Part shown: piece by piece, positions 1-30,660 of the stretch
Position numbering within the stretch: position 1 is the first letter of the stretch
Layout: each line of letters opens with the position of its first letter
From: Mansonella perstans
Taxonomy: Eukaryota > Nematoda > Chromadorea > Rhabditida > Onchocercidae
Direction: 5' to 3'
DNA length: 64,000 bases
NCBI GenBank assembly: GCA_037074765.1
Contig: JBAMDO010000191.1
Coordinates: forward strand, 1 to 64,000
Notes under the pieces: model-generated
Told to the model about the DNA's origin: nothing
Seen by the model: only the letters and a program-made list of their open reading frames with translations
Database searches by the model: none
Program-made: the position numbers and the translations under genes

Positions 1-206
1 TGAATAATTCTTAACGCAATGCATTTTTTTTCGGGAAATATGAAAACCAAACTTTTTTTTTGCGTGTTGCCATTTAATTGCAATAATTAATGAAATTAAT
101 CGCCATGTTACAGTGTTTTGTGATAATTGAATTAAAGCTAATTAACTTATTTGAATTTGAATAAGAAATCGTAACGTGTAGATCCGTGATGAATTCCAAT
201 TTTCAG

Positions 207-650
207 CGAAATTCAAATCATTTGAAGTCATTTGACAATACAAATGATGATAGCTTATCAGATCATGATGATAGCTTATCAGATGACTCAGATGATGATG
301 ATTTATTAGTCCTTAAATTATGCTAATCATTTAAACCGTGAAGATGGGTCAACATGAATGAACAGATCATTTGAACAATGATACAATCGACAAATGATAC
401 CCTTGAGTAAGCTTGACTGCTATAACTTCTTCCTGTAAGCTATAACATATCGCATGTTGTAAGTTTTTTTTCTTTTTTTTTTTTGTAAATTTAAACTCAT
501 TTTGAATATACAAAAATATAGCAGTTAAATTTTGAGAAAAATTATCGCTATGCGATATTTTAATATCCTTTTGCAAGTTTGGTGAATGATCTTCTGTTGC
601 AGTCGTTACGTCGCATCAATTTCACCGCTGCTTATGACTTACAACACAAT
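207..650 (+). pseudogene. Small acidic secreted protein gene, first copy (exons 2-3 only, frameshifted)
   Basis: Second-copy counterpart is the complete gene at 20,261-21,045. Exon 2 starts after a TTTTCAG acceptor at 207 and keeps the Asp/Ser-rich DDSLSD repeats, but single missing bases (for example in the run before TTAGTCC near 303-312) throw the frame into a TAA. Exon 3 starts near 603 and lacks one C compared with the other copy. Exon 1 with the signal peptide would lie before position 1, so the gene is cut by the window edge. Because many of the differences are lost bases in short homopolymers and the whole first 1.6 kb shows them, the breaks are more likely sequencing or assembly errors than true mutations. 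Confidence is high that this is the duplicate, low that it is really broken. Confidence 0.6.
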
Positions 651-2440
651 TAAGCAATTTATAAAGAAGGCAAAAAAAAACACTGAAAATTGAAAGAAAA
701 ATTGAAAGATCACTTATCACATTTATCACAAATAGCTTTTTATTATAGTTCTTTTATGTGTGTGAACATTCGGCGATGTGTTGTTGAATAAATTGAAATT
801 TGTTTTTGTGTTGTCATTTTGGCATCAAATAATTTTCACTTCAATACCGACCGATTTCAATTTCATTTGTAATCATTCAAAATAGTGATGAAAACGATAC
901 AATGAGCGTTATGTGATATGTCTAATGAATGACATTAATATCAACAAATATTAATTTATCTTCATTATAAATACATTTTAATTAAACTTCTGTCTATCCA
1001 AATGAGCCAGAAGATTATATGAATGATTCTTATCATAGCAATGATTTGCAATGTTTAGAGTGAAGAGTTATTGATAGCATCGTGAAATAAAGAATTTGAT
1101 TGAAAAATCATGTCATAAGTTAACCAGTATAACACCAAATTTTTTGGGACAGCTGTGCAAAACAGAGAATTGTTAGGAAATGTTAAATTAACTTTTGGAA
1201 ATTTTTATTGAATTATTGGATGATTAATTTCTGGAAACTATTATCATAGCCACATTTATTATTACTTTTTTATTTCTCGTTAATTGAACGAAAAAAGTTA
1301 AATCAAATTTTTCTGAAATATTAATTATGCTGTTCCACTGATTGCGCACTTTTCGTCCTCTTTTTATAATCTTGATATTGATAGAGTAAAATGTACAGAA
1401 GAAAATTTCAATGAAAGTAAATGGGAACAGCAACATTATTGCACAACGATACCATAATCATTGCTTGGTATGAGGAGAAAATTGCGCATTAACAATAGCA
1501 TTTAAAGTAATTTTGAAATAATCGAAGTGAAGTTGGAATATAAGCTGCTATCAACATTGATACATTTGCTTGTATGGAGAGTTCAAGTAATCGAAGTATA
1601 GATGGCAGGTATAAATCAGGTATCATAGTTGATTTAAATTCTACAATGATTTTCCCTATGGTTCATCATATTTCTTTGCTTTTTTCACTGTATCTCTTCG
1701 AAATATTGCTTGTGATTGAAAGATTTTCTGTTTCTTTTCTTTTAATATTATTATTACATAATTGTTAATCTATTCAATTTAATAATTAAACATGCAATAT
1801 TTTTGCGTATGCAACTAGCCAGGATGAAATGCTACTATTTTCTTTCGTTTAGTGATATCACAAAAATGACCAAGAATCGATTCAATCAAAATAGCTATCA
1901 AGCTACTGCGAAAGTTGAAGATGGCATTAGAAGATGACAATGCTTATATGCTAAGTCATCATTGATACCTCTTCATGATTTTTTCCTGTTTATCTTTGTC
2001 ATCTGAATATTATTATTTCTAATCAACTTTCCGAAGAGTTGATTTAAAATTTTTTCTAGAAATTATATCTGGTAATTTACAGCCGTAAACTTACAAGCTG
2101 CAAAAATTTCAATCATTTTTTTTAAAAAAGAATACAGAGGATTCTTTGAATATATTCTACTTTTTTGTAAATACAAAAAAGTAGAATTTATAAATACAAT
2201 GCATGTAAGCTGATCATATGACAAAAAATTTGATCTTTTCAAGAAATTTCATTGCCTCATATTAAAAAATTTATAGCTTGAATACGGTATTTAACCATTT
2301 GAATATGGTTAGTTTACTTTTGGTAAAGTAAAAAATTGAAAAGAAATGAATGAATTAAAATGAGGAGGAGACGAAAGGAACTCAAAAATGATCACTTGAA
2401 GCAAAGATTTTTATAGCCATCTGCAAATAATAATATTTAT
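651..2440. other. Intergenic, no gene seen
   Basis: AT-rich sequence between the acidic secreted-protein gene and VAL-A. No reading frame has convincing composition or splice context. The only structure is a short perfect inverted repeat at about 2,155-2,188 (arm ATTCTACTTTTTTGTA), present in both duplicate copies. Confidence 0.6.
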
Positions 2441-2625
2441 GAAATCATGTTGCCTTTAAGCAAACAAAGCAATTCAGAAATTTCATAAAAGACGATTGAT
2501 ATGGGTAAAAATTTTAGCTAGCAAGTTGACACTTATTTTACATCGTATATTCGTCAAGCTAGTTTTCTATTATCAAATATATTTCTGAAGCTAAAAGTAT
2601 ACATTCTGTCCAAATTTTCAGTCAA

Positions 2626-4425
2626 ATGTTCCTTTCCATCATATTTTCAGCGATTATCATCGGTATGTTGAAACGAAAATTTCATTATATATGATAATTT
2701 CAGCTATAAACTCCGAATATTTGAATTAACAGTGTTAGGCCTTTCCGTCAGGAAATTTTTGACATCTTTTCAAAATATGCTAATTTATTTGGAACATTGC
2801 AGCTGAAGCAGATTATCACTGTCGAGATGGTAAGCTAACACCAAAACAACGCAAAGACATTGTTCGCCAGCATAATGAATTTCGTTCACAGCTGATTCAT
2901 GGGAAGCTTAGAAATAAGGATGGTAATTATATGCCACGAGGGAAAAATATGCTGAAACTGGTAAAAAATATATTGAAAAAATTTCTGAATGTACTGAGAA
3001 AATTACAGTATTTTTTTTGTTAATATCGATTGTTCAGAAATGGAGTTGTGGATTAGAATATTTCGCGCAAAGATGGGCTGATCTGTCCGTTTTGAAAAAT
3101 TCAACAAAGCATCGACGAAAAGGAATCGGTAAAAATGTTTACGCTTACTGATCATCGGCAAACATAACTATAGGTTTATGTCACCTAAAGTTTTGAAAAC
3201 TTATCTGATAAAACAAAAACCTTAGTATGTATGAAAAATCATTATAAGAAATATTAGAATCAGAAAACGATTACGATACAATTATGGTACAATTACGGTA
3301 GGAAGTGTATGAGTAGAAAATGAATGAATGAAATCTCATTTATAGGGCTTAGCAAAACTACTATTATGGATGTTGGCAAACAATGGTGGGAACAACTTCA
3401 AAAATACTATCCGAACAATCCCTCGAATAAATTTACTGAGAATGTTCCCCATAAATCTTGGTATTTCACACTGGTAAGGAAAATTTTATGTCAGTCTTAA
3501 GAATTAAATTACATCTATTCGATTTATTCTGAAAGATATTTCAAATAAATGATCAAATTGATAAATTTTCAAAGGCATTTCAACAGCAGCTCTACATCTC
3601 GCAATAAGCAAACCCAATGATACTTTTGCAGCGCGATCTTATGTAAGTAATACTAATATATCGCAAGGCTAAAGATAATGCCTCACCGACTTTCTCCCCA
3701 CACAATGTGTTTATCTGTTATAAGGTGATTATCTGGTAGTTATCTTGTACATTATAAGGTGATCATTTGGTGGTTATTTGATACAAGGTGGTTGCCTGTT
3801 AAAAAACACAACTTTTCGAGCTCTCAGTGGAAAGATTGGAGAATCAAGTTTTCTATGAGTACAAAAAACTATGGATTGGCTTCTTTTCTTTAATTTCATC
3901 AAGGTGAGAAGTGAAAAATCATTCCTTAAACTATTTTGAAGGAGCTCTGGAAGTTCAATCTTGGAAAGAAAATTAAGGTTGAGTAAATTGTTTCATTTTG
4001 CACACAGATTACATTCGATGACCTTTGACTCAAGAAATGTATTTTTAAGAATTTTTTTCAATGCTTATTTTCAGTTAGCTTGGGGTGAAACATATAAAAT
4101 TGGCTGCGCTACTGCTACATACCACGATGGTGGTGAAGTATTTGTTACTTGCCACACGTCACCTATGTAAGCTTTAGTGTTATTTGTCGAAGCAAAATGT
4201 TACTTAAACATTTCTGTTTCTTTTTATTTTTATCATGTTCAATTAATCAGAAGAAATATGCATTTCACTTTTAATTTTGTTCATAAATAAAGTTTCAGTG
4301 GAAATAAGCTCGGTGAAATGATTTATGAGCTTGGCGAACCATGCAAGAAGAACAATGATTGTTATACCAATAAATGCTCAAAAAAAACTGGGCTGTGTAA
4401 AATGAAAAAATTTAGCCTTTTTTAA
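2626..4425 (+). CDS. VAL-A1: venom allergen-like (ASP/SCP/TAPS) secreted protein, short exon 3 form
   Basis: CAP/SCP superfamily secreted protein. Six exons fit: 2626-2662, 2803-2960, 3038-3128, 3346-3473, 4075-4166, 4299-4425, giving 210 aa. A hydrophobic leader starting MFLSIIFSAIII is followed by LTPKQRKDIVRQHNEFR (CAP3 motif HNxxR), WYFTLLAWGET (CAP1) and FVTCHTSPIGN (CAP2), then a Cys-rich tail with CKKNNDC and TGLCK. Exon 3 must end at 3128 (GGAATCG/GTAAAAATG). Reading on to the donor used by paralogues C-E meets an in-frame TGA where they have Trp. The short form loses the GENIY motif and its Glu. The paralogues' QCVF cysteine is replaced (LSV). Secreted VALs of this kind are abundant in parasitic stages; their ligand is unknown. 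It lies tail to tail with VAL-B1. Whether it is expressed or a pseudogene depends on use of the new donor. Confidence 0.65.
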
Positions 4426-4496
4426 ATTTTACTTTATCCTATGTGATTGATCATCATTAAGTATGTTTTCGTATGTTTACAATAACTAGTTTACAA

Positions 4497-4712
4497 TAAA
4501 ATCTGGTCTTTGAAGGACTTCTTAGACTATTTCTGGACCGCTAACTTCTGGCATATCACGTCAGTGATTAACAGATCTATGTGTAAACTTTTTTCGTACA
4601 TCATTTCCAATGTCTTTTTACCCGTGCTAGCTTCTATTGTATCAAACCCTTGTCTTTGTAATGTTTTAACAGTGAATTCTCTTACTGAATTTTCATCTTC
4701 GATCAAATTACT
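4497..4712 (-). pseudogene. Bacterial response-regulator receiver domain fragment (CckA-like), nuclear Wolbachia transfer candidate
   Basis: Read on the minus strand it gives [19 protein letters not shown], then FDTIEAS, then DLLITDV, and after a one-base frame change MPEVSGPEIV. This is the classic receiver order: acidic pair, amphipathic helix, the phospho-acceptor Asp in the LLITD strand, then MPxxSG. The closest style is the receiver of hybrid histidine kinases such as alphaproteobacterial CckA. Frameshifts, and a TAA after GPEIV, show it is dead. Animals do not normally have receiver domains, so a bacterial origin is well supported. Wolbachia as donor is inferred from the filarial context. 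It abuts an aconitase fragment on the opposite strand. Copy 2 keeps four more bases here, reading EVLIQRPDF. Confidence 0.8.
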
Positions 4713-5032
4713 AAGTCAAAGGAAAGTAATGTACTTCAATATGGAAGTGTAGTTATTGCAGCGATAACGAGCTGTACGAACACCTCAGACCCAAGTGTAA
4801 TGATTGCTGCTGATCTTGTAGCACACCGTGCAGTCAAATTTGGAATAAAATCAAAGCCTTGGATTAAAAACTTCTCCCGCCTCGGGATCACAAGTTGTAA
4901 CAAAATATTTAGAAAAATCAGAATTACAGAAAGATCTAAGTGCTCTGGGCTTTAATTTGGTTGGATACGGTTTTGCACAACTTGCATTGGAAATTCTGGT
5001 CCATTTAATGGAAAGCTGAAATCAAATGATCG
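4713..5032 (+). pseudogene. acnA: Aconitase fragment (acnA-like), nuclear Wolbachia transfer candidate
   Basis: In frame from 4731 the sequence reads [19 protein letters not shown] and continues [19 protein letters not shown]. After a frame change it reads [16 protein letters not shown] and [10 protein letters not shown], and after another [10 protein letters not shown]. These are the [4Fe-4S]-cluster Cys segments of AcnA-type aconitases (SCTNTS and CTTCIGNSG). At least two frameshifts and loss of both ends make it a pseudogene fragment of about 100 codons. AcnA-type enzymes also include animal IRP1. The bacterial assignment rests on the abutting receiver-domain fragment and on the [12 protein letters not shown] wording, which suits the bacterial branch better. 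Confidence 0.8.
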
Positions 5033-5971
5033 AAAAAATACAATAATTTTATAGTAAAAAGTTATTTCAATTTTAGTTAAAAATAATCATATTATATAAT
5101 TACTTTGTGAAATTAAATATTGTTTTGAATTAGTTAATTCGTCAAATATTGTAAATTCATCAAATATTGTACTTTTGTATCGTATATTTCTTTCAAGCAT
5201 TAATATTTCCTTGTGCCCGCAAAAGAAAAGAAAGCAAAGATTAGTTAGCAATAATGATACACTGATAAGAGTGTTGTAATATATTTTATTTACAATAATT
5301 ATTTTTAATGAGAGTTTTTGAAAATTATTATTTCCTGCATTATAGAAGGGATTTTTCAAATATATTTCTATTCCTACAATATTTCAGAATTTTTTAAATT
5401 TCAATTTTATATGTCATTTAATTTATTTGTAAGCGTTCTATGACATGTGATTGCATGTATTGCAGTAATAGTCTGTTGAAAAAATGGAAAATTTTATATA
5501 TTTCATATGATGTTCCATAAGTGGTCATTTGTCATAGCAAATTTATCGATTCATCCGCATATCATTATTATAATTTGATTAAATTCATTTAATTAAAGCT
5601 AACTTATGAAATGACCAGATAAAATGATAAGGCATTAGCTTTATCATTCAACATGATTAGCAATGAATTAAGCACCCATACTTAATTCAAATTTCTGGAA
5701 CACTTATCAGTGAGTGTATTCACTGTTTAGTGTTATGTGAAGTATAGACTTATGTGCACGTCTTATTAGGAAAGGAAATGGATGACGAGGTACAAACAGT
5801 CACGTGAAATAGTAAAGTGAAAGCGGCAAAATAATATCCTTTAAAAGTATACAATTTGTATTGATATTGTTTCATTTTTTCCCTTTAAATTTCAAATTTG
5901 AAAAATTGAAAAATTTCAAGCTGATAAAGTAAGTGATAAATCATTTTCACTGATAAATTGTCTGAGCTAAC
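5033..5971. other. Intergenic, no gene seen
   Basis: AT-rich. A 90-codon minus-strand frame at 5,087-5,359 is also open in the other copy, but the two copies are near-identical, so that says nothing about selection. It has no recognisable domain and no splice context. Confidence 0.5.
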
Positions 5972-6170
5972 CAATCATTACATTGCACACGTAATTTGAG
6001 TATCAGTGCTTATCAATCATTACATTTATACACGCAGTCTGAGGTGTCAGTGCCTACCATTACATTTTTACACGCAGTTTGAGGTGTCGGTCTTATCACT
6101 TATTACATTGATACACGCAATTGAGGTGTCAATGCTTACACTCATTACATTGATATGCGCAATTTGAGGT
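5972..6170. repeat. Minisatellite, ~43-bp unit, about 5 copies
   Basis: Degenerate tandem units each contain ATTACATTgATACACGCA, then TTTGAGGTGTC, then AGTGCTTA. They recur between VAL-A and VAL-B in both large duplicates (the partner is at 26,442-26,644), so the array predates the duplication. Confidence 0.8.
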
Positions 6171-6512
6171 TTTCATATTTGAATATGATTTTATCAAAAA
6201 TCAATTGAAATAATAAAAACTATAATGAAGTATTTCTCATTATTCCATGTTTTCCAGTATTTCATAATTAGATTCCTTATTTCTCCATAAATGAGTTTTA
6301 GCAAATGAAAACCAATGATTTCTGAAAAGGAGGCAAATTTAAACACTGCCGTCTACAATATCATATCAATAAGAAAAGACTGATGAATGGTTTCACTCTC
6401 TCCATAGTTTTATCACATAAAAGATTCTGTTTATTATGGCATTTGAAAAACATTTTCATTCCACAGGCAAGTACGTCTCAACAATTATTAATTATATAGT
6501 ATAAAATAACAT

Positions 6513-8272
6513 TTAAAAAAACAGATACTTTTTCTTTTTACACAATCCAGTCTTTTTCGAGCATTTCTTAGTATAACAATCTTTGTCTTTTTTGCATGGT
6601 TCGCCAAGCTCATAAATCAATTCTCCCACCTTATTCCCACTGAAACTTTATTTATAAATGAAATGCAAATTATTTCCGGTTAAATCAACCCAATAAAAGT
6701 GAAAAGGAAATTGTTCAAAATGGATGATTTCTTAAAGGAATTATGACGAACGATAATTTAAAATAGAAGTATTTAGTAGCGTTTTTGCATCAACAATAAC
6801 AGTAAAACTTACGAAGGATATACGTTGCAAGTAGCAACTCCTTTAGTACCATCGCAACGCCTAGCAAAAGCGCAGCCAATTTCACGCGCTTCGCCCCAAG
6901 CAAGCTAAAAATAAGCATTAAAAAAAAAATTTACAGAAAATGCATTTCTTGAATGTAAAGGTCATCGGATGTAATTTGTCTGCAAAATGAAACTGATTTA
7001 CTTAACCTCAATTTTATTCCTAAATTCTAAAGCTTCTTCAAAATAGTTTAAGGAATGATTTTCCATTCTCGCTTAAATAAGATTAAGGAAAGGAAACCGA
7101 TCGATAAATTTTTTATTCATGGAAAACTTGATTCTCGAAGTTTTCCACTGAGAGCTCGAAAAATTGTACTTATAACTCTCAACTGTGTGAGAGATAAATC
7201 GGTAAGCATTATCTGTAGGTTTGCAACCGGCCAATAGCATTACTTACATAAGATCGTGTCACACTTTAAAGTATCATTGGGTTTGTTTAACACGACTTGC
7301 TTGCTGGATATCTTGGAAAATTTATCAATTTGATCATTTCAATACGGGATATTTTGAATTATCTTAGAACTTGAAATATTTTAAAATAATCGAATAGATG
7401 TTATCCAATAATTCATATTTACATAAAATTTTCATTACCTGTGTAAATTCAAAAGTTGATTGGGAATATCAGAAGTAAATATATTCGAAGGATTATCCGG
7501 ATAATAATTTGTAAGTTCCGACCACCAGAGGTTGCTAGCAACCATAATAGCATGTGATGGAGAATGCACTAAAAGCGAGATTTTTATTCATTTATTTTCT
7601 GCTCATGCATTTCCAAACTACCTTGTAATTGTATTTCAAATTCCAATATTTCATCTACTGAATTTTCATTTATATGCTAAAGTTGTGGTTTTTTATCAGA
7701 TAAATTTCAGAATTTCAGGTGAAATAAATATACTTTCAATGTTTTGCAGACGATCAGTAAGCATAAACATTTTTACCTGATCCTGCTTTATTTTCATAAC
7801 TGCACTGATCTACTGTTTGCTGCGCCGCATATTCTAATTTACAACTCCATGTCTAAACAATCGATTAGTAATTAATGAAAAAAATAATACAGTAATTCTT
7901 TTGAATAATACATTCGAATCATAAGATATTTTTTACCAGTTCCATCATATTTTTCCCTCGTGGCATATAATTACCATCCTTATTTCTAAGCTTCCCATGA
8001 ATCAGCTGTGAACGAAATTCATTATGCTGACGAACAATGTCTATGCGTTGTTGTGGTGTTAGTTTACCATCTCGACAATGATAACCTGCCACAGCTGCAA
8101 TGTTCCAAATGAATTAGCATGGTTTGAAATGATGTCAAAAATTTCTTAACGAAATGGCCTAATATTTAAACATTCAAATATTCGGAGTTTATAGCTGAAA
8201 TTATCATATATAATGAAATTTTCATTTTAACATACCAATGATAATCGCTGAAAATATGATGGAAAGCAACAT
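6513..8272 (-). pseudogene. VAL-B1: venom allergen-like gene with a 1-nt deletion in exon 4
   Basis: Minus-strand six-exon VAL gene with exons (5' to 3') 8236-8272, 7937-8094, 7777-7852, 7439-7568, 6813-6904 and 6513-6639. Leader MLLSIIFSAIII, then VRQHNEFRSQL (CAP3), WWSELTNYYPDNPSN, LAWGEAREIGC (CAP1 tail), ATCNVYPSGN (CAP2) and a Cys-rich end CSKKTGLCKKKK. As in VAL-A, exon 3 is open only if it ends at the new donor GGATCAG/GTAAAAATG (7777); the older longer exon has TGA for Trp and a second TGA. Exon 4 lacks one C (CCCAATCAAC here, CCCAACTCAAC in B2), which shifts the frame before the FTQ motif. This may be a true null or a sequence error, since B2 is intact. Tail to tail with VAL-A1. Confidence 0.75.
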
Positions 8273-9226
8273 TTTGCTGGATATTTGAACAGAACTTTAG
8301 CTTCAGAAAATATCCTTGCTTGGCGAATATGCAATATAAAATAAATGCTGACTTTTATTCATATCAATTCCTTTTATGAAACTTAGCTTTGTTTGCTTGA
8401 AGACAACATGATTTCTATAAATGTCATTATTTGTAGAAGCTAAAAAAATTTTTGCTTCAATTGATCCTTTTTGAATACTTTTTTTTCCTCCTCCTTTATT
8501 TTATTCATTTCTTTTCATTTTCTTACTTTACTGACCAAAAGTAAACCAACTATAATCAAATATTTCGACATACCGTATTCAAGCTCAAAATTTTTTAATA
8601 TGAGGCAATAAAACTTCCTAATATCATCAAATTTTCTGTAACATGGTGAGCAGCTTGCATATATTACCTTTGCAATATCTAAAGCACAAATTCAGCAATA
8701 AGCCTCTACATGAAATTTTCATTTTAACATACCAATGATAATAGCTGAAAATATGATGGAAAGCAACATTTTGCTGGATATTTGAACAGAACTTTAGCTT
8801 CAGAAACATATTTGATAATAGAAAACTCGCTTGGCGAATATGCAATATAAAACAAGTGCTGACTTTTATTCATACCAATTCCTTTTATGAAACTTCTGAA
8901 ATGCTTTGTTTGCTTGAAGACAACATGATTACTATAAATGTCATTATTTGTAGAAGCTAAAAAAACTTTTGCTTCAATTGATCCTTTTTGAATACCTTTT
9001 TTTCCTCCTCTTTTATTTCATTCATTTCTTTTCATTTTCTTACTTTACTGATCAAAAGTAAACCAACTATAATCAAATAGTTCGACATACCGTATTCAAG
9101 CTCAAAATTTTTTAATATGAGGCAATAAAACTTTCTAATATCATCAAATTTTCTGTAACATGGTGAGCAGCTTGCATATATTATCTTTGCAATATCTAAA
9201 GCATAAATTCAACAATAAGCCTTTAC
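8213..9226. repeat. Tandem duplication (~0.5 kb unit) of VAL-B exon 1 and upstream region
   Basis: 8,213-8,709 repeats at 8,710-9,226. Each unit includes the first coding exon of VAL-B (minus strand, start codons at 8,270-8,272 and 8,767-8,769, offset 497) and several hundred bases upstream. The second, distal exon 1 is intact, including its ATAC splice-donor complement, but has no exon 2 directly downstream. The other large-duplication copy has only one unit (28,720-29,210), so this event came after the ~11 kb duplication. Confidence 0.85.
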
Positions 9227-10639
9227 ATACAAAAATAACTCCTTTGGAGTATCTGAAGCATAAATTCAACATTAAGCCTCATCCACTATCTTTACTTTTG
9301 TTTTTTACAAGTGACTTAAATTTTTACATTTTGCCAATTTATAATTTAGTTTACTAACTGATTAAAGTTTTCCCTGCCTAATTAATTGCTAATGAATAGT
9401 ATCAGTGACTAGTCATATTGATTATTTCATCTTTCTAAAATATTTGCAATAGCTAAACTTTGATTCTTTAATACCAATATTTGCTTTTTTTTTCTTTTAA
9501 GCATTCATTTACAGAAGCGCTTTTTTTGTTATTCTAGTTATCATCAGAAAATTCATTGTCAGTTCAAAAATTCATAGAAAACGGAATAGTTTTTAAATGT
9601 TTTACCAAAATTTTCTAGTGATTTAACATCATATTCAATATTTTTATTCCAACACAAGTTTGAAATCCTTTTTTGAAAAGAAAAGTATACAAATCATAAT
9701 CCTAATACATTACTGCATCATTATTTATTCTTGTTAATAATTTTAAAGTAAAATATTTTCTGTCACAATTCGTTAAATGTTATTTTCATCGTTAGTTTTC
9801 AAATTCAATAAATTTCAATATTGTTCGGAAACTTCTTATTATATTTTCTTTAGCATTTTTTTTCATTGCTATCCGAAACAGATTTTTTATCCTTAGTGAA
9901 AGGATCTAGGAATAAAAGTCTGTCAGTATCATCAATTGACTTTTATCAAAGCCCTTATATCTAAGTCAAGCTATACAAATAGTAATTCATTCTTAATTTT
10001 AAGTTATTCTGATATAAACAAAAAATTGCACGAAAATATCTATTTCAAAGCATACCATCCATTCCTTAATAATTCTTGTTTCTGTTTCACATTGTTGAAA
10101 TAATTCTTCTCTTGTCCGCATCTGATCTGGATGGCGTTAAATCTATTTCTCCCATTTCACCATCGAATCTCTCTAACTTTACCTTTGCCAATTAACTGCA
10201 ATTCTGTGCTTACTATATCGGATGTTATATTATTAATCAGAAATATTATTTGCTGGCATTTAATTAAGCAGAGGTTAATAAAACAGTAGTGACAAATCAG
10301 ATATTACTTTTGGAAAAAATAAAATGCACAAAGTAAGGGACTGAGTAAGAATTGTATTCCTACGGATTATAGAAAAGTGCTTACATGAAGATATTGTGCC
10401 GAAATTAAACATACAATAGGAATTTTAATTTCATCAGAAAATTCCGTCCAATTTTGTTGAAAAAAATTGAGCTTGAATTTATAATATAGAAATATAGACA
10501 AAAAAAAAAAAGAAAAGAAAGATCTAGACAATGAACTAAAGCTGATATTTGGATAGCTGACGCATTTAATGAAAATTAAGAAATATTTGAGCAGCTTTAG
10601 AAGATAAAACCTTGAAGTTCGATGCTGTGTACAAAAATA
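9227..10639. other. Intergenic between divergent VAL-B and VAL-C, no gene seen
   Basis: AT-rich; shared with 29,210-30,660 in copy 2. A short open frame beginning at 9,160 lies mainly in the VAL-B upstream repeat and is not gene-like. Copy 2 carries a ~40-bp tandem duplication (TTCTTGTTTCTGTTTCACAT, twice) at about 30,057-30,127 that is absent here. Confidence 0.5.
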
Positions 10640-10783
10640 GCCAGCTTAGAAACCGCATAAAAGGATCACGTTGAGCACAAGATTTCAGTTGATAAATCAA
10701 AAATATATTTGTAAAGCGATATCTTTTATTATCAAATATATTTCAGAGGCTAGTAATATAAATTCAATCTAAGATTCAGCAAA

Positions 10784-11206
10784 ATGTTACTTCACATCAT
10801 GTTTTCCGCAATAATCGGTGGTAAGTTAAATTAGAAATTTTATCGCATATGGTTCGTGAAATAGTGAATTTCATAATTACTGAATTACCCAATTAAATAC
10901 TAAATCACCGAATGTACTGAATTACTCAATTAAAGAACCACTGACAGCTGGTATCATTTTGAAAAGTTAATTATGCTCTTGCAGTTATGGCAGAAAAGGC
11001 AGATTATCAGTGCCCAGAAGGTCGATTAACACCGCAACAACGTAAAGCAATTGTTCGTCAAAATAATGACTTCCGTTCACAACTGATTCATGGGAAGCTT
11101 AAAAATAGAAATAATAAATATATGCCGACCGGCAAGAATATGTTGCAAATGGTAAAAATATATTACGAAAAATTTTTCAAATGTAATGCAAATATTACTA
11201 TCGATT
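10784..11206 (+). pseudogene. VAL-C1: 5' fragment of a venom allergen-like gene (exons 1-2 only)
   Basis: Exon 1 (10,784-10,820) encodes leader MLLHIMFSAIIG. Exon 2 (10,985-11,151) encodes ADYQCPEGRLTPQQRKAIV, RQNNDFRSQLIHGKL and MPTGKNMLQM. Both match the complete VAL-C2 gene almost base for base. Shortly into intron 2, at 11,206/11,207, the homology stops abruptly and exons 3-6 are missing, because the breakpoint of the ~11 kb duplication lies here. The exon 2 reading frame runs on into the intron to a TGA at about 11,221, so at most a truncated CAP N-terminus could be made. The upstream promoter-like block is intact, so transcription remains possible. Confidence 0.85.
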
Positions 11207-20260: not shown

Positions 20261-21045
20261 ATGAAAAAAATCACACAATTTCCGCTATGCGCAACACTAC
20301 TGCTATTTTGTATTTTTGGTGCAGAAATGTCATCGGCATTTCTGGTAATTTTCAAATTGCTATGTTATGAATAATTCTTAACGCAATGCATTTTTTTTTC
20401 GGGAAATATGTAAACCAAAACTTTTTTTTTTGCGTGTTTGCCATTTAATTGCAATAATTAAATGAAATTAATCGCCATGTTACAGTGTTTTGTGATAATT
20501 GAATTAAAGCTAAATTAAACTTATTTGAATTTGAATTAAGAAATCGTAAGCGTGTAGATCCGTGATGAATTTCCAATTTTCAGCGAAATCCAAATCATTT
20601 GAAGTCATTTGACAATACAAATGATGATAGCTTATCAGATCATGATGATAGCTTATCAGATGATTCAGATGATGATGATTTTATTAGTCCCTTAAATTAT
20701 GCTAATCATTTAAACCGTGAAAGATGGGTCAACATGAATGAAACAGATCATTTGAACAATGATACCAATCGACAAATGATACCCTTGAGGTAAGCTTGAC
20801 TGCTATAACTTCTTCCTGTAAGCTATAACATATCGCATGTTGTAAGTTTTTTTTTCTTTTTTTTTTTTTTGTAAATTTAAACTCATTTTGAAATATACAA
20901 AAAATCATAGCAGTTAAATTTTGAGAAAAAATTATCGCTATGCGATATTTTAATATCCTTTTGCAAGTCTGGTGAATGATCTTTCTGTTGCAGTCGTTCA
21001 CGTCGCATCAATTTCACCGCTGCTTATCACTTACAACACAATTAA
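20261..21045 (+). CDS. Small acidic secreted protein, unrecognised (113 aa)
   Basis: Three exons with matching phases: 20,261-20,344, 20,584-20,789 and 20,994-21,045. Exon 1 encodes MKKITQFPLCATLLLFCIF followed by GAEMSSAFL, a typical signal peptide. Exon 2 is rich in Asp and Ser (DDSLSDHDDSLSDDSDDDD) and has an NET glycosylation sequon. Exon 3 encodes SRSRRINFTAAYHLQHN and stop, with a basic RSRR site that could be cleaved by a furin-type protease and an NFT sequon. Splice sites are GTAATT/TTTCAG and GTAAGC/TTGCAG. I recognise no domain. It is presumably secreted. The pattern of acidic spacer, RSRR and short C-terminal peptide would also suit a pro-peptide. A partial, frameshifted duplicate lies at 207-650. 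Confidence 0.65.
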
Positions 21046-22950
21046 GCAAATTTATAAAGAAGGCAAAAAAAAAACACTGAAAAATTGAAAGAAAAATTGA
21101 AAGATCACTTATCACATTTATCACCAAATAGCTTTTTATTATAGTTCTTTTATGTGTGTGAACATTCGGCGATGTGTGTTGTTGAATAAAATTGAAATTT
21201 GTTTTTGTGTTGTCATTTTTGGCATCAAATAATTTTTTCACTTCAATACCGACCGATTTCAATTTTCATTTTGTAATCATTCAAAAAAAGTGATGAAAAC
21301 GATACAAATGAGCGTTATGTGATATGTTCTAATGAATGACAGTTAATATCAACAAATATTAAAATTTACCTTCATTATAAGCAACATTATAATTAAACTT
21401 TCTGTCTATCCAAAATGAGCCAGAAAGATTATATGAATGATTCTTATCAATAGCAATGATTTGCAATGTTTAGAGTGAAGAGTTATTGATAGCATCGTGA
21501 AATAAAAGAATTTGATTGAAAAATCACTGGTCATAAGTTAACCAGTATAACCACCAAAATTTTTTTGGGACAGCTGTGCAATAAACAGAGAATTGTTAGG
21601 AAAATGTTAAAATTAACTTTTGGAAATTTTTCATTGAATTAATTGGATGATTAATTTTCTGGAAACTATTATCATAGCCACATTTAATTATTACTTTTTT
21701 ATTTCTCGTTAATTGAACGAAAAAAAGTTAAATCAAAATTTTTCTGAAAATATTAATTATGCTGTTCCACTGATTGCGCACTTTTCGTCCTCTTTTTTAT
21801 AATCTTGAATATTGATAGAGTAAAGTGTACAGAAGAAAATTTCAAATGAAAGTAAAATGGGAACAGCAACATTAATTGCACCAACGATACCATAATCATT
21901 GCTTGGTATGAGGAGAAAATTGCGCATTAACAATAGCATTTAAAGTAATTTTGAAATAATCGAAGTGAAGTTGGAATATAAGCTGCTATCAACACTGATA
22001 CATTTGCTTGTATGAAGAGTTCAAGTAATCGAAGTATAGATGGCAGGTATAAATCAGGTATCATAGTTGATTTTAAATTCTACAATGACTTCCCCTATGA
22101 TTCATCATATTTCTTTGCTTTTTTTCACTGTATCTCTTCGAAATATTGCTTGTGATTGAAAGATTTTCTGTTTCTTTTCTTTTAATATTATTATTACATA
22201 ATTGTTAATCTATTCAATTTAATAATTAAACATGCAATATTTTTGCGTATGCAACTAGCCAGGATGAAATGCTACTATTTTCTCTTCGTTTAGTGATATC
22301 ACAAAAATGACCAAGAATCGATTCAATCAAAATAGCTATCAAGCTACTGCGAAAGTTAAAGATGGCATTAGAAGATGACAATGCTTATATGCTAAGTCAT
22401 TATTGATACCTCTTCATGATTTTTTCCTGTTTATCTTTGTCATCTGAATATTATTATTTCTAATCAACTTTCCGAAGAGTTGATTTAAAATTTTTTCTAG
22501 AAATTAGATCTGGTAATTTACAGCCGTAAACTTACAAGCTGCAAAAATTTCAATCATTTTTTTTAAAAAAGAATACAGAGGAACGTATGAGATTTCCTGT
22601 AGAATTTATTCTTTGAATATATTCTACTTTTTTGTAAATACAAAAAAGTAGAATTTGTAAATACAATGCATGTAAGCTGATCATATGACAAAAAATTTGA
22701 TCTTTTCAAGAAATTTCATTGCCTCATATTAAAAAATTTATAGCTTGAATACGGTATTTAACCATTTGAATATGGTTAGTTTACTTTTGGTAAAGTAAAA
22801 AATTGAAAAGAAATGAATGAATTAAAAATGAGGAGGAGACGAAAGGAACTCAAAAACGATCACTTGAAGCAAAGATTTTTATAGCCATCTGCAAATAATA
22901 ATATTTATGAAATCATGTTGCCTTCAAGCAAACAAAGCAATTCAGAAATT
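21046..22950. other. Intergenic, no gene seen
   Basis: Counterpart of 651-2,440. It carries a ~30-bp block (around 22,580-22,615) that the first copy lacks and the same short inverted repeat near 22,622-22,655. Confidence 0.55.
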
Positions 22951-23093
22951 TCATAAAAGACGATTGATATGGGTAAAAATTTTAGCTAGCAAGTTGACAC
23001 TTATTTTACATCGTATATTTGTCAAGCTAGTTTTCTATTATCAAATATATTTCTGAAGCTAAAAGTATACATTCTGTCCAAATTTCCAGTCAA

Positions 23094-24893
23094 ATGTTCC
23101 TTTCCATCATATTTTCAGCGATTATCATCGGTATGTTGAAACGAAAATTTCATTATATATGATAATTTCAGCTATAAACTCCGAATATTTGAATTAACAG
23201 TGTTAGGCCTTTCCGTTAGGAAATTTTTGACATCTTTTCAAAATATGCTAATTTATTTGGAACATTGCAGCTGAAGCAGATTATCACTGTCGAGATGGTA
23301 AGCTAACACCAAAACAACGCAAAGACATTGTTCGCCAGCATAATGAATTTCGTTCACAGCTGATTCATGGGAAGCTTAGAAATAAGGATGGTAATTATAT
23401 GCCACGAGGCAAAAATATGCTGAAACTGGTAAAAAATATATTGAAAAAATTTCTGAATGTACTGAGAAAATTACAGTATTTTTTTTGTTAATATCGATTG
23501 TTCAGAAATGGAGTTGTGGATTAGAATATTTCGCGCAAAGATGGGCTGATCTGTCCGTTTTGAAAAATTCAACAAAACATCGACGAAAAGGAATCGGTAA
23601 AAATGTTTACGCTTACTGATCATCGGCAAACATAACTATAGGTTTATGTCACCTAAAGTTTTGAAAACTTATCTGATAAAACAAAAACCTTAGTATGTAT
23701 GAAAAATCATTATAAGAAATATTAGAATCAGAAAACGATTACGATACAATTATGGTACAATTACGGTAGGAAGTTTATGAGTAGAAAATGAATGAATGAA
23801 ATCTCATTTATAGGGCTTAGCAAAACTGCTATTATGGATGTTGGCAAACAATGGTGGGAACAACTTCAAAAATACTATCCGAACAACCCCTCGAATAAAT
23901 TTACTGAGAATGTTCCCCATAGATCTTGGTATTTCACACAGGTAAGGAAAATTTTATGTCAGTCTTAAGAATTAAATTACATCTATTCGATTTATTCTGA
24001 AAGATATTTCAAATAAATGATCAAATTGATAAATTTTCAAAGGCATTTCAACAGCAGCTCTACATCTCGCAATAAGCAAACCCAATGATACTTTTGCAGC
24101 GCGATCTTATGTAAGTAATACTAATATATCGCAAGGCTAAAGATAATGCCTCACCGACTTTCTCCCCACACAATGTGTTTATCTGTTATAAGGTGATTAT
24201 CTGGTAGTTATCTTGTACATTATAAGGTGATCATTTGGTGGTTATTTGATACAAGGTGGTTGCCTGTTAAAAAACACAACTTTTCGAGCTCTCAGTGGAA
24301 AGATTGGAGAATCAAGTTTTCTATGAGTACAAAAAACTATGGATTGGCTTCTTTTCTTTAATTTCATCAAGGTGAGAAGTGAAAAATCATTCCTTAAACT
24401 ATTTTGAAGGAGCTCTGGAAGTTCAATCTTGGAAAGAAAATTAAGGTTGAATAAATCGTTTCATTTTGCACACAGATTACATTCGATGACCTTTGACTCA
24501 AGAAATGTATTTTTAAAAATTTTTTTCAATGCTTATTTTCAGTTAGCTTGGGGTGAAACATATAAAATTGGCTGCGCTACTGCTACACACCACGATGGTG
24601 GTGAAGTATTTGTTACTTGCCACACGTCACCTATGTAAGCTTTAGTGTTATTTGTCGAAGCAAAATGTTACTTAAACATTTCTGTTTCTTTTTATTTTTA
24701 TCATGTTCAATTAATCAGAAGAAATATGCATTTCATTTTTAATTTTGTTCATAAATAAAGTTTCAGTGGAAATAAGCTCGGTGAAATGATTTATGAGCTT
24801 GGCGAACCATGCAAGAAAAACAATGATTGTTATACCAATAAATGCTCAAAAAAAACTGGACTGTGTAAAATGAAAAAATTTAGCCTTTTTTAA
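23094..24893 (+). CDS. VAL-A2: venom allergen-like secreted protein, short exon 3 form
   Basis: Near-identical duplicate of VAL-A1. Exons 23,094-23,130, 23,271-23,428, 23,506-23,596, 23,814-23,941, 24,543-24,634 and 24,767-24,893 give 210 aa. It keeps CAP1 as WYFTQLAWGET (A1 has WYFTL), so it is the more canonical copy. CAP3 HNEFR and CAP2 VTCHTSP are present. Exon 3 ends at the upstream donor GGAATCG/GTAAAAATG; the older exon end carries TGA at the Trp position of the YAYW motif. The His of the HFTQ motif is Tyr and the GENIY Glu is Lys or spliced away, so the CAP cavity cannot be canonical. Convergent with VAL-B2. Confidence 0.65.
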
Positions 24894-24960
24894 ATTTTAC
24901 TTTATGCTATGTGATTGATCATCATTAAGTATGTTTTCGTATGTTTACATTAACTAGTTT

Positions 24961-25183
24961 ACAATAAAATCTGGTCTTTGAATTAGGACTTCTTAGACTA
25001 TTTCTGGACCGCTAACTTCTGGCATATCACGTCAGTGATTAACAGATCTATGTGTAAACTTTTTTCGTACATCATTTCCAATGTCTTTTTACCCGTGCTA
25101 GCTTCTATTATATCAAACCCTTGTCTTTGTAATGTTTTAACAGTGAATTCTCTTACTGAATTTTCATCTTCGATCAAATTACT
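24961..25183 (-). pseudogene. Bacterial receiver-domain fragment, second copy
   Basis: Same fragment as at 4,497-4,712. This copy retains the bases for EVLIQRPDF after GPEIV, with TAA replacing the residue between them. Order and damage are otherwise identical, so the insertion happened before the ~11 kb duplication. Confidence 0.8.
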
Positions 25184-25503
25184 AAGTCAAAGGAAAGTAA
25201 TGTACTTCAATATGGAAGTGTAGTTATTGCAGCGATAACGAGCTGTACGAACACCTCAGACCCAAGTGTAATGATTGCTGCTGATCTTGTAGCACACCGT
25301 GCAGTCAAATTTGGAATAAAATCAAAGCCTTGGATTAAAAACTTCTCCCGCCTCGGGATCACAAGTTGTAACAAAATATTTAGAAAAATCAGAATTACAG
25401 AAAGATCTAAGTGCTCTGGGCTTTAATTTGGTTGGATACGGTTTTGCACAACTTGCATTGGAAATTCTGGTCCATTTAATGGAAAGCTGAAATCAAATGA
25501 TCG
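25184..25503 (+). pseudogene. acnA: Aconitase fragment, second copy
   Basis: [19 protein letters not shown] begins at 25,202, with the same frameshifts as 4,713-5,032. The shared lesions date decay before duplication. Confidence 0.8.
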
Positions 25504-26441
25504 AAAAAATACAATAATTTTATAGTAAAAAGTTATTTCAATTTTAGTTAAAAATAATCATATTATATAATTACTTTGTGAAATTAAATATTGTTTTGAA
25601 TTAGTTAATTCGTCAAATATTGTAAATTCATCAAATATTGTACTTTTGTATCGTATATTTCTTTCAAGCATTAATATTTCCTTGTGCCCGCAAAAGAAAA
25701 GAAAGCAAAAATTAGTTAGCAATAATGATACACTGATAAGAGTGTTGTAATATATTTTATTTACAATAATTATTTTTAATGAGAGTTTTTGAAAATTATT
25801 ATTTCCTGCATTATAGAAGGGATTTTTCAAATATATTTCTATTCCTACAATATTTCAGAAATTTTTTAAATTTCAATTTTATATGTCATTTAATTTATTT
25901 GTAAGCGTTCTATGACATGTGATTGCATGTATTGCAGTAATAGTCTGTTGAAAAAATGGAAAATTTTATATATTTCATATGATGTTCCATAAGTGGTCAT
26001 TTGTCATAGCAAATTTATCGATTCATCCGCATATCATTATTATAATTTGATTAAATTCATTTAATTAAAGCTAACTTATGAAATGACCAGATAAAATGAT
26101 AAGGCATTAGCTTTATCATTCAACATGATTAGCAATGAATTAAGCACCCATACTTAATTCAAATTTCTGGAACACTTATCAGTGAGTGTATTCACTGTTT
26201 AGTGTTATGTGAAGTATAGACTTATGTGCACGTCTTATTAGGAAAGGAAATGGATGACGAGGTACAAAACAGTCACGTGAAATAGTAAAGTGAAAGCGGC
26301 AAAATAATATTCTTTAAAAGTATACAATTTGTATTGATATTGTTTCATTTTTTCCTTTAAATTTCAAATTTGAAAAATTGAAAAATTTCAAGCTGATAAA
26401 GTAAGTGATAAATCATTTTCACTGATAAATTGTCTGAGCTA

Positions 26442-26644
26442 ACCAATCATTACATTGGCACACGTAATTTGAGTATCAGTGCTTATCAATCATTACATTT
26501 ATACACGCAGTCTGAGGTGTCAGTGCCTACCATTACATTTTTACACGCAGTTTGAGGTGTCGGTCTTATCACTTATTACATTGATACACGCAATTTGAGG
26601 TGTCAATGCTTACACTCATTACGTTGATATGCGCAATTTGAGGT
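26442..26644. repeat. Minisatellite, ~43-bp unit, second copy
   Basis: Partner of 5,972-6,170, with the same number of units and only point differences. Confidence 0.8.
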
Positions 26645-27009
26645 TTTCATATTTGAATATGATTTTATCTAAAATCAACTGAAATAATAAAAACTATAAT
26701 GAAGTATTTCTCATTATTCCATGTTTTCCAGTATTTCATAATTAGATTCCTTATTTCTCCATAAATGAGTTTTAGCAAATGAAAACCAATGATTTCTGAA
26801 AAGGAGGCAAATTTAAACACTGCCGTCTACAATATCATATCAATAAGAAAAGACTGATGAATGGTTAATACCAAAATGAAGGAAAACAGTCACTCTCTCC
26901 ATAGTTTTATCACATAAAAGATTCTGTTTATTATGACATTTGAAAAACATTTTCATTCCACAGGCAAGTACGTCTCAACAATTATTAATTATATAGTATA
27001 AAATAACAT

Positions 27010-28769
27010 TTAAAAAAACAGATACTTTTTCTTTTTACACAATCCAGTCTTTTTCGAGCATTTCTTAGTATAACAATCTTTGTCTTTTTTGCATGGTTCG
27101 CCAAGCTCATAAATCAATTCTCCCACTTTATTCCCACTGAAACTTTATTTATGAATGAAATGCAAATTATTTCCGGTTAAATCAACCCAATAAAAGTGAA
27201 AAGGAAATTGTTCAAAATGGATGATTTCTTAAAGGAATTATGACGAACGATAATTTAAAAAGAAGTATTTAGTAGCGTTTTTGCATCAACAATAACAGTA
27301 AAACTTACGAAGGATATACGCTGCAAGTAGCAACTCCTTTACTACCATTGCAACGCCTAGAAAAAGCGCAGCCAATTTCACGCGCTTCGCCCCAAGCAAG
27401 CTAAAAATAAACATTAAAAAAAAAATTTACAGAAAATGCATTTCTTGAATGTAAAGGTCATTGGATGTAATTTGTCTGCAAAATGAAACTGATTTACTTA
27501 ACCTCAATTTTATTCCTAAATTCTAGAGTTTCTTCAAAATAGTTTAAGGAATGATTTTCCATTCTCGCTTAAATAAGATTAAGGAAAGGAAACCGATTGA
27601 TAAATTTTTTATTCATGGAAAACTTGATTCTCGAAGCTTTCCACTGAGAGCTCGAAAAATTGTACTTATAACTCTCAACTGTGTGAGAGATAAATCGGTA
27701 AGCATTATCTGTAGGTTTGCAACCGGCCAATAGCATTACTTACATAAGATCGTGTCACACTTTAAAGTATCATTGGGTTTGTTTAACACGACTTGCTTGC
27801 TGGATATCTTGGAAAATTTATCAATTTGATCATTTCAATACGGGATATTTTGAATTATCTTAGAACTTGAAATATTTTAAAATAATCGAATAGATGTTAT
27901 CCAATAATTCATATTTACATAAAATTTTCATTACCTGTGTAAATTCAAAAGTTGAGTTGGGAATATCAGAAGTAAATATATTCGAAGGATTATCCGGATA
28001 ATAATTTGTAAGTTCCGACCACCAGAGGTTGGTAGCAACCATAATAGCATGTGATGGAGAATGCACTAAAAGCGAGATTTTTATTCATTTATTTTCTGCT
28101 CATGCATTTCCAAACTACCTTGTAATTGTATTTCAAATTCCAATATTTCATCTACTGAATTTTCATTTATATGCTAAAGTTGTGGTTTTTTATCAGATAA
28201 ATTTCAGAATTTCAGGTGAAATAAATATACTTTCAATGTTTTGCAGACGATCAGTAAGCATAAACATTTTTACCTGATCCTGCTTTATTTTCATAACTGC
28301 ACTGATCTACTGTTTCCTGCGCCGCATATTCTAATTTACAACTCCATGTCTAAACAATCGATTAGTAATTAACGAAAAAAATAATACAGTAATTCTTTTG
28401 AATAATACATTCGAATCATAAGATATTTTTTACCAGTTCCATCATATTTTTCCCACGTGGCATATAATTACCATCCTTATTTCTAAGCTTCCCATGAATC
28501 AGCTGTGAACGAAATTCATTATGCTGACGAACAATGTCTATGCGTTGTTGTGGTGTTAGTTTACCATCTCGACAATGATAACCTGCCACAGCTGCAATGT
28601 TCCAAATGAATTAGCATGGTTTGAAATGATGTCAAAAATTTCTTAACGAAGTGGCCTAATATTTAAACATTCAAATATTCGGAGTTTATAGCTGAAATTA
28701 TCATATATAATGAAATTTTCATTTTAACATACCAATGATAATCGCTGAAAATATGATGGAAAGCAACAT
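27010..28769 (-). CDS. VAL-B2: venom allergen-like secreted protein, short exon 3 form (206 aa)
   Basis: Exons 5' to 3': 28,733-28,769, 28,434-28,591, 28,274-28,349, 27,935-28,065, 27,309-27,400 and 27,010-27,136; the frame is open throughout. Leader MLLSIIFSAIII, Cys-containing VAGYHCRDGKLTP, CAP3 VRQHNEFR, WSCKLEYAAQETVDQC, WWSELTNYYPDNPSN, STFEFTQLAWGEA (CAP1 with Glu where His is usual), ATCNVYPSGN (CAP2) and tail CKKDKDC...CSKKTGLC. Exon 3 uses the donor GGATCAG/GTAAAAATG. Beyond it the relic NVYAY, TGA, SSA and the old donor GTATAT remain visible in the intron. Intact partner of VAL-B1. Transcribed away from VAL-C2 and towards VAL-A2. Confidence 0.7.
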
Positions 28770-29209
28770 TTTGCTGGATATTTGAACAGAACTTTAGCTT
28801 CAGAAAATATCCTCGCTTGGCGAATATGCAATATAAAATAAGTGCTGACTTTTATTCATATACCAATTCCTTTTATGAAACTTCTGAAATGCTTTGTTTG
28901 CTTGAAGACAACATGATTTCTATAAATGTCATTATTTGTAGAAGCTAAAAAAACTTTTGCTTCAATTGATCCTTTTGAATATTTTTTTTCCTCCTCCTTT
29001 ATTTCATTCATTTCTTTTCATTTTCTTACTTTACTGACCAAAAGTAAACCAACTATAATCAAATAGTTCGACATACCGTATTCAAGCTCAAAATTTTTTA
29101 ATATGAGGCAATAAAACTTTCTAATATCATCAAATTTTCTGTAACATGGTGAGCAGCTTGCATATATTATCTTTGCAATATCTAAAGCATAAATTCAACA
29201 ATAAGCCTT

Positions 29210-30660
29210 TACACACAAAAATAACTCCTTTGGAGTATCTGAAGCATAAATTCAACATTAAGCCTCATCCACTATCTTTATTTTTGTTTTTTACAAGTGA
29301 CTTAAATTTTTACATTTTGCCAATTTATAATTTAGTTTACTAATTGATTAAAGTTTTCCCGCCTAATTAATTGCTAATGAATAATATCAGTGACTAGTCA
29401 TATTGATTATTTCATCTTTCTAAAATATTTGCAATAGCTAAACTTTGATTCTTTAATACCAATATTTGCTTTTTTTTCTTTTAAGCATTCACTTACAGAA
29501 GCGCTTTTTTTGTTATTCTAGTTATCATCAGAAAATTCATTGTCAGTTCAAAAATTCGTAGAAAACGGAATAGTTTTTAAATGTTTTACAAAAATTTTCT
29601 AGTGATTTAACATCATATTCAATATTTCTATTCCAACACAAGTTTGAAATCCTTTTTTGAAAAGAAAAGTATACAAATCATAATCCTAATACATAACTGC
29701 ATCATTCATTTATTCTTGTTAATAATTTTAAAGTAAAATATTTTCTGTCACAATTCGTTAAATGTTATTTTCATCGTTAGTTTTCAAATTCAATAAATTT
29801 CAATATTGTTCGGAAACTTCTTATTATATTTTCTTTAGCATTTTTTTTCATTGCTATCCGAAACAGATTTTTTATCCTTAGTGAAAGGATCTAAGAATAA
29901 AAGTCTGTCAGTATCATCAATTGACTTTTATCAAAGCCCTTATATCTAAGTCAAGCTATCCAAATAGTAATTCATTCTTAATTTTAAGTTATTCTGATAC
30001 AAACAAAAAATTGCACGAAAATATCTATTTCAAAGCATATCATCCATTCCTTAATAATTCTTGTTTCTGTTTCACATTGTTGAAATAATTAATTCTTGTT
30101 TCTGTTTCACATTGTTGAAATAATTCTTCTCTTGTCCGCATCTGATCTGGATGGCGTTAAATCTATTTCTCCCATTTCACCATCGAATCTCTCTAACTTT
30201 ACCTTTGCCAATTAACTGCAATTCTGTGCTTACTATATCGGATGTTATATTATTAATCAGAAATATTATTTGCTGGCATTTAATTAAGCAGAGGTTAATA
30301 AAACAGTAGTGACAAATCAGATATTACTTTTGAAAAAAATAAAATGCACAAAGTAAGGGACTGAGTAAGAACTGTATTCCTACGGATTATAGAAAAGTGC
30401 TTACATGAAGATATTGCGCCGAAATTAAACATACAATAGGAATTTTAATTTCATCAGAAAATTCCGTCCAATTTTGTTGAAAAAAATTGAGCTTGAATTT
30501 ATAATATAGAAATATAGACAAAAAAAAAAAGAAAAGAAAGATCTAGACAATGAACTAAAGCTGATATTTGGATAGCTGACGCATTTAATGAAAATTAAGA
30601 AATATTTGAGCAGCTTTAGAAGATAAATCCTTGAAGTTCGATGCTGTGTACAAAAATAGC
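29210..30660. other. Intergenic between divergent VAL-B2 and VAL-C2
   Basis: Counterpart of 9,227-10,639; no gene seen. Contains a ~40-bp tandem duplication at 30,057-30,127. Confidence 0.5.

What the first reader, a model, noticed from the sequence alone, without database searches (positions are those of the whole stretch)
4497..5032. Head-to-head bacterial fragments (receiver domain and aconitase) inside the VAL cluster
Two unrelated bacterial gene pieces on opposite strands abut with no spacer, both frameshifted. A receiver domain has no animal counterpart. This is a nuclear Wolbachia transfer candidate that was rearranged on insertion or in the donor genome, and it was then copied with the host segment (second copy 24,961-25,503).
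Basis: partly seen in the sequence, partly recalled or inferred. Interest (0 to 1): 0.75.

Follow-up and report, generated by a model that had tools for sequence, protein, structure and literature searches.

The report
Two-gene Wolbachia fossil beside VAL gene
A half-kilobase scrap of dead DNA from a Wolbachia bacterium, stitched from pieces of two unrelated genes, lies next to a secreted-protein gene in a filarial worm chromosome; such fossils are well known, but this one sits where two stretches of worm DNA meet that lie apart at a related locus.

Summary
Window ~4500-5016 (second copy 24968-25487) is a nuclear Wolbachia transfer (NUWT) made of two internal gene pieces in opposite orientation: CckA residues ~705-774 on the minus strand and AcnA residues ~395-490 on the plus strand, with at most 9 unassigned bases between them. 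Both are frameshifted; CckA also has a stop. The best protein matches of both pieces are Wolbachia. The AcnA piece groups with supergroup F Wolbachia of Mansonella perstans and M. ozzardi (84/83%). Own-genome searches found no third copy and no intact acnA or cckA. The copies differ by 0.19% substitutions plus one 3-base indel (flanks 0.40-1.00%), so the NUWT was duplicated with at least ~11 kb of host DNA. Published synteny of 12 Wolbachia strains (supergroups A-D) puts hemF next to cckA. New here: against a NUWT-free paralogous locus (contig C97), the two host flanks match places ~3.6 kb apart in opposite orientation. The NUWT thus lies at a seam of host rearrangement, like filler DNA in break repair. 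A second cckA piece lies on contig C149. It is a typical member of a known class at an informative site. A role in the VAL-A 3' end is possible but untested.

The parts
4501..4706 (-). NUWT piece 1: CckA receiver region, residues ~705-774 of 826-829; frame break at ~4554, TAA stop at 4522-4524; a 3-base codon present in copy 2 is missing here
   Evidence: 41 of 65 candidates at E<=0.001, best P0121 [Wolbachia sp. MAG] 79% over 97% of the piece; best NCBIfam model CckA NF046020 E 7.6e-11 (40.6 bits, far below its whole-protein cut-off, as expected of a piece)
4716..5006 (+). NUWT piece 2: AcnA residues ~395-490 of 867, perhaps from 4707 and to 5016; frame breaks at ~4872-4884 and ~4972
   Evidence: best P0001 [Wolbachia of Mansonella perstans] 84%, P0002 [M. 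ozzardi] 83%
4707..4715 (.). Seam between the two bacterial pieces, 0-9 bases not firmly assigned
4402..4425 (+). End of the VAL-A coding sequence (...MKKFSLF*), stop codon 4423-4425, about 75 bases before the NUWT
4495..4500 (+). AATAAA at the host/NUWT seam, the only canonical poly(A) signal within 160 bases after the VAL-A stop; also in copy 2
   Evidence: 4246 of 20000 random 105-base stretches of the window hold AATAAA, so weak evidence
5017..6477 (-). Right host flank: collinear in blocks (69-75%, 87% next to the stop) with DNA downstream of the C97 VAL gene; BLAST homology starts at 5017
6484..7886 (-). VAL-B, inverted paralogue of VAL-A; stop codon 6513-6515
24968..25487 (.). Second copy of the whole NUWT (1 substitution, one 3-base indel)
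1..11206 (+). Host segment that carries copy 1, cut by the contig start; repeated in the same orientation at 20368-31225
   Evidence: 97.5% over 8850 aligned columns, 96.9% over 1409, 99.3% over 1141, gaps counted
20368..31225 (+). Second copy of the host segment

Best explanation
Non-coding nuclear fossil of a supergroup F Wolbachia. Two short fragments of Wolbachia DNA, from inside cckA and inside acnA, were joined end to end and sealed into a chromosome break in the worm germ line. The repair joined the 3' flank of VAL-A to DNA that lies far downstream of a VAL-B-type gene, with the bacterial DNA as filler at the seam. The insert then decayed and was later copied with at least 11 kb of host DNA in a direct segmental duplication. 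Shown: Wolbachia origin, head-to-head structure, decay, two copies, duplication after insertion, and coincidence with a homology breakpoint between host loci. Inferred: end-joining repair, a single event, supergroup F for the CckA half, and Mansonella (probably M. ozzardi) as the host.
For: CckA piece: 41 of 65 candidates; named rows are Wolbachia at 63-79%, one 'Rickettsiales bacterium' at 69% and one Mesenet at 51%. Trees: AcnA piece with wMpe and wMoz (ultrafast bootstrap 100), CckA piece with a Wolbachia MAG (99). Own assembly: two copies; full-length Wolbachia AcnA adds one weak 41% match; CckA adds one other decayed piece on C149. Decay: 4 of 53 AcnA and 5 of 38 CckA positions invariant among the relatives used are changed, roughly 3-6% substitutions per site; copies differ by 0.19% inside and 0.40-1.00% in four flanking stretches. 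Seam: right-flank homology with C97 begins at 5017, left-flank homology runs to 4463 by BLAST; in C97 the two homologues lie ~3.6 kb apart in opposite orientation, and the C97 DNA beyond the right-flank homologue has no match in the window at E 1e-4.
Against: No reads, no second isolate and no Wolbachia DNA were available. The seams rest on protein homology and one paralogous locus, and gapped alignments blur both ends (left runs weakly on to 4516, into CckA; right back to 5003). C97 and VAL-B differ by ~26% in aligned non-coding blocks, far more than the estimated age of the NUWT, so the seam may be older than the insert. The species name is inferred from assembly size and the Wolbachia matches.
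Confidence: 0.7

Rival explanations
1. One larger NUWT was inserted, and later deletions and an inversion in the nucleus shrank it to two touching scraps; the host seam was trimmed then or was there before.
For: Old NUWTs are fragmented (PMC12693587 sections and passages; PMC4046930 passages). The genome holds another cckA piece from a nearby, non-overlapping part of the gene (residues 580-654).
Against: No other Wolbachia remnant was recognised at the locus, but only AcnA and CckA were searched for; opposite orientation needs an inversion as well as deletions within an estimated 3-6% divergence.
Confidence: 0.16
2. The cckA-acnA join existed in the donor Wolbachia, or in a loose piece of its DNA, before transfer.
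For: Wolbachia genomes rearrange often (PMC3998919, passages); supergroup F synteny could not be read here.
Against: Both pieces are internal, so the donor would have lost the 5' parts of both genes, among them a conserved two-component kinase; hemF lies 5' of cckA in the 12 strains surveyed (PMC4426382, sections 9 and 12).
Confidence: 0.08
3. Not exclusive of the above: the NUWT now has a role, because the AATAAA on the host/bacterial seam ends the VAL-A transcript inside bacterial DNA.
For: AATAAA at +69 after the stop in both copies and none other within 160 bases; paralogues have it at +77 (VAL-B) and +81 (VAL at 32.7 kb). A Wolbachia piece in the likely 3' UTR of a Dictyocaulus gene is reported (PMC4046930, passage).
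Against: 21% of random 105-base stretches hold AATAAA; the C97 paralogue has its first only at about +157; no transcript data.
Confidence: 0.2
4. Assembly artefact: live Wolbachia reads mis-joined into the worm contig.
For: Mansonella carries live supergroup F Wolbachia (PMC10195089, passages).
Against: Two assembled copies with diverged flanks share the same insert, and the insert is decayed and at best 84% (AcnA) and 79% (CckA) like the nearest living strains listed.
Confidence: 0.03

Closest known systems
Nuclear Wolbachia transfers (NUWTs) of filarial nematodes, surveyed in 22 species (PMC12693587; abstract, first part of methods, results and passages read)
   Same: Short, decayed Wolbachia fragments in the nuclear genome, most non-functional, some duplicated within the host; M. 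ozzardi and M. perstans were surveyed
   Different: In the parts read, chimeric two-gene inserts or inserts at rearrangement seams are not described; its supplementary tables could not be read, so the AcnA half may already be listed there
Wolbachia-like fragments of Acanthocheilonema viteae and Onchocerca flexuosa (PMC2882956; passages read)
   Same: Average length 159-174 bp and identity 78-81% in its Table 1; more Wolbachia homologues than genomic fragments (49 on 45, 114 on 92), so some fragments hold more than one
   Different: Those hosts are Wolbachia-free; no comparison with paralogous insert-free loci in the passages read
Fossil Wolbachia in Dictyocaulus viviparus (PMC4046930; passages read)
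   Same: Inactivated fragments in nematode contigs, nearest to filarial and clade F strains, one in a likely 3' UTR
   Different: A strongyloidean nematode, nearly 1 Mb of Wolbachia-like sequence

Membership tests
Nuclear Wolbachia transfer (NUWT) | Sequence nests within Wolbachia | tested here: met
Nuclear Wolbachia transfer (NUWT) | Flanked on both sides by host nuclear DNA in one contig | tested here: met
   flanks match VAL paralogue loci; contig C191 is 113,038 bases
Nuclear Wolbachia transfer (NUWT) | Decayed relative to living Wolbachia | tested here: met
Nuclear Wolbachia transfer (NUWT) | Nuclear read depth and reads across both junctions | not testable with these tools
   no reads
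Functional horizontally acquired gene | Intact open reading frame | tested here: not met
   frame breaks in both pieces, stop codon in CckA; about 96 of 867 AcnA and 70 of 826-829 CckA residues present
Supergroup F origin | Nearest to supergroup F strains in a tree | tested here: inconclusive
   Met for AcnA (ultrafast bootstrap 100 for NUWT with wMpe and wMoz). For CckA the nearest is a Wolbachia MAG of unstated supergroup, and no named F-strain CckA was listed
Filler DNA at a rearrangement seam | The two host flanks are not contiguous in a locus without the insert | tested here: met
   against one paralogous locus (C97), not an allele or orthologue; exact ends blurred
Filler DNA at a rearrangement seam | Seam and insert arose in one event | not tested
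   needs related species

The most novel reading that the evidence does not exclude
Endosymbiont DNA served as patch material for a chromosome break that reshaped a gene family of secreted proteins: a two-piece Wolbachia patch sealed VAL-A to the DNA of its inverted neighbour, now ends the VAL-A transcript, and was then amplified with the gene.
Probability: 0.15. Interest if true: 0.55.

Novelty: new member of a known kind. Interest (0 to 1): 0.35.

Why it matters
NUWTs record past infections and how bacterial DNA enters animal chromosomes; PMC2882956 (passage) calls the mechanism unknown. A chimeric insert at a host rearrangement seam, with a paralogous insert-free locus for comparison, points to capture during break repair and can be tested across Mansonella species. 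If such patches were often found at breakpoints, the mechanism would become directly testable.

Tried and rejected
Wolbachia genome DNA was sought and not reached. Three class-wide searches of the same 385 alphaproteobacterial genomes, a VirB10 search of 32 small genomes (6 of 32 matched) and one family search of 55 genomes (no match; I had guessed the wrong family) led to no Rickettsiales genome that I could recognise. Viral contigs gave none. So the cckA-acnA distance in supergroup F strains, DNA-level dating and exact seam bases stay open. I recall wMel acnA as WD0105, far from cckA (WD_1215-16 in PMC4426382), but no call shows it; a search of the wMel paper for aconitase or that tag found nothing.

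Rejected: nematode origin of the two pieces (no nematode named among 120 and 41 listed rows). A poly(A) signal at the seam as proof of function was set aside because 21% of random stretches hold AATAAA. I did not test for a mobile element or target-site duplication beyond reading the ends. Phage and plasmid searches with unknown neighbours of the C149 piece found nothing. A paper search for the contig number did not confirm the host species. A first CckA protein search found nothing; the second, with a longer piece placed earlier in the query, succeeded.

Full report
What is there. The window is bases 1-64000 of contig C191 (113,038 bases) in a 75.7 Mb assembly of 539 contigs. At ~4500-5016 a CckA receiver piece on the minus strand meets an AcnA piece on the plus strand. 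CckA residues ~705-774 and AcnA residues ~395-490 are internal stretches of both proteins, with their N-terminal sides facing each other. CckA homology is firm to 4706 and AcnA homology from 4716; the nine bases between may belong to AcnA. Neither piece could make a protein: CckA has a frame break and a TAA, AcnA two frame breaks. Copy 2 keeps a codon in CckA that copy 1 lacks and that Wolbachia CckA also has, so copy 1 lost three bases after the duplication.

Origin. Searched against 5.8 billion proteins (piece set inside a full-length aconitase so that lengths match, X at frame breaks), the AcnA piece matches the Wolbachia of Mansonella perstans (84%) and M. ozzardi (83%), then other Wolbachia; rows P0041-P0120 follow at 67-75%, the named ones alphaproteobacteria and Psychrosphaera. 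Two of the first 40 rows carry other labels: 'Rickettsiales bacterium' (P0004) and Glossina (P0025). The CckA piece matches named Wolbachia at 63-79%, one 'Rickettsiales bacterium' at 69% and Mesenet at 51%; a first search with a shorter piece found nothing. Maximum-likelihood trees put the AcnA piece with the two supergroup F Mansonella strains and the CckA piece with a Wolbachia MAG of unstated supergroup. The best NCBIfam models are CckA and AcnA. Both pieces thus come from Wolbachia; supergroup F is supported for AcnA only.

Copies. A DNA search of the own assembly finds only 4497-5032 and 24965-25503. Full-length Wolbachia AcnA adds a weak 41% match on C521, possibly a host aconitase exon. 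Full-length CckA adds one more decayed piece, C149:86202-86444, residues 575-655 at 84% with two stops, or residues 580-654 at 88% by tblastn. It does not overlap the window's piece. Beside it lie an unidentified frame on one side and, on the other, frames of which one matches a bacterial M9 peptidase just above its cut-off (PF01752, E 6e-6, 26.2 against 26 bits). That locus may be another multi-piece insert, but the origin of its neighbours is not shown. No intact acnA or cckA was found in the assembly by these searches.

Duplication. Window 1-11206 matches 20368-31225. Between the copies the NUWT shows 1 substitution in 517 aligned bases (0.19%) and one 3-base gap; four flanking stretches show 1.00%, 0.40%, 0.85% and 1.00% substitutions, with 0, 28, 101 and 5 gap bases. 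The insert is no more diverged than its flanks and was copied with them. Of positions invariant among the relatives used (39 AcnA and 35 CckA sequences, several without an organism name; the Glossina row was left out), 4 of 53 AcnA and 5 of 38 CckA are changed in the NUWT, which suggests 3-6% substitutions per site since transfer: rough, but well above the divergence of the duplicates.

Host side. The insert starts about 75 bases after the stop of VAL-A (plus strand). VAL-B is an inverted paralogue with its stop at 6513-6515. A VAL locus on C97 without the NUWT gives a reference. Downstream of the C97 gene, aligned blocks (87% next to the stop, then 69-75%) run collinear with the DNA downstream of VAL-B, from window 6477 to 5017, where BLAST homology stops at the edge of the insert; C97 carries an extra ~1.5 kb near window 5320. 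C97 DNA beyond that point has no match in the window, and an own-genome search with it found one further partial match, on C57. The left flank of the insert matches the 3' flank of the C97 VAL gene, to 4463 by BLAST; gapped alignments run weakly past the insert's edge on both sides (to 4516 and back to 5003), so the ends are approximate. In C97 the two homologues are about 3.6 kb apart and in opposite orientation. The insert therefore sits at, or within a few tens of bases of, a breakpoint between host segments. The simplest account is that Wolbachia fragments were used as filler when a break was repaired. A later insertion into an older seam, with loss of host DNA, is not excluded, because VAL-A, VAL-B and the C97 gene diverged much earlier than the insert seems to have arrived.

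The join of cckA to acnA. In a survey of 12 Wolbachia strains of supergroups A-D, cckA has hemF at its 5' side in all, and parA/parB at its 3' side in all but wBm and wOo (PMC4426382, sections 9 and 12). Adjacency to acnA is therefore not the usual state, but supergroup F was not in that survey and no F genome could be read here.

Possible effect. The only AATAAA within 160 bases after the VAL-A stop lies at 4495-4500, on the seam. If used, VAL-A transcripts would end in bacterial DNA. VAL-B and another paralogue have AATAAA at +77 and +81, C97 at about +157, and 4246 of 20000 random 105-base stretches hold the hexamer, so this is a lead only. A Wolbachia piece in a nematode 3' UTR has been reported (PMC4046930, passage).

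Known kind. NUWTs were surveyed in 22 filariae including M. ozzardi and M. perstans (PMC12693587: abstract, first part of the methods, results, and passages). Fragment sizes and identities in other filariae are similar (PMC2882956, passages). The words 'mosaic' and 'rearrange' do not occur in the main text of PMC12693587, but its supplements could not be read, so I do not claim that this insert is unreported. Host species: the assembly span is near that of M. ozzardi in Table 1 of that paper (76.05 Mb against 75.73 Mb) but not equal, so the name is an inference.

Noticed in passing
L132 (G000:C149:83000-90000), local 2971-4446: Possible second multi-piece insert: CckA residues ~580-654 (88% identity) beside an unidentified frame and frames of which one matches a bacterial M9 peptidase model just above cut-off (PF01752).
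   Followed up: partly
window 38956-39074 (-) and 47841-47959 (-): Two 5S rRNA genes (Rfam RF00001, 84.2 and 79.3 bits), carried in a second direct duplication (about 34.1-41.0 kb versus 41.0-49.9 kb).
   Followed up: no
window 1291-2062 and 21720-22503; reverse complement of L131, 5714-6599: A ~0.8 kb block upstream of VAL-A recurs (75-81%) inside the intergenic DNA of the C97 VAL locus, where the DNA beside VAL-B lacks it; possibly a dispersed repeat.
   Followed up: no
window 4475-4499: GTTTACAATAA occurs twice, 14 bases apart start to start, right before the NUWT; possibly templated junction sequence. Copy 2 has one mismatch in the first unit.
   Followed up: partly
window 31791-32723 and 33816-34705: Inverted repeats at 86-98% in blocks of 201-479 bases.
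   Followed up: no
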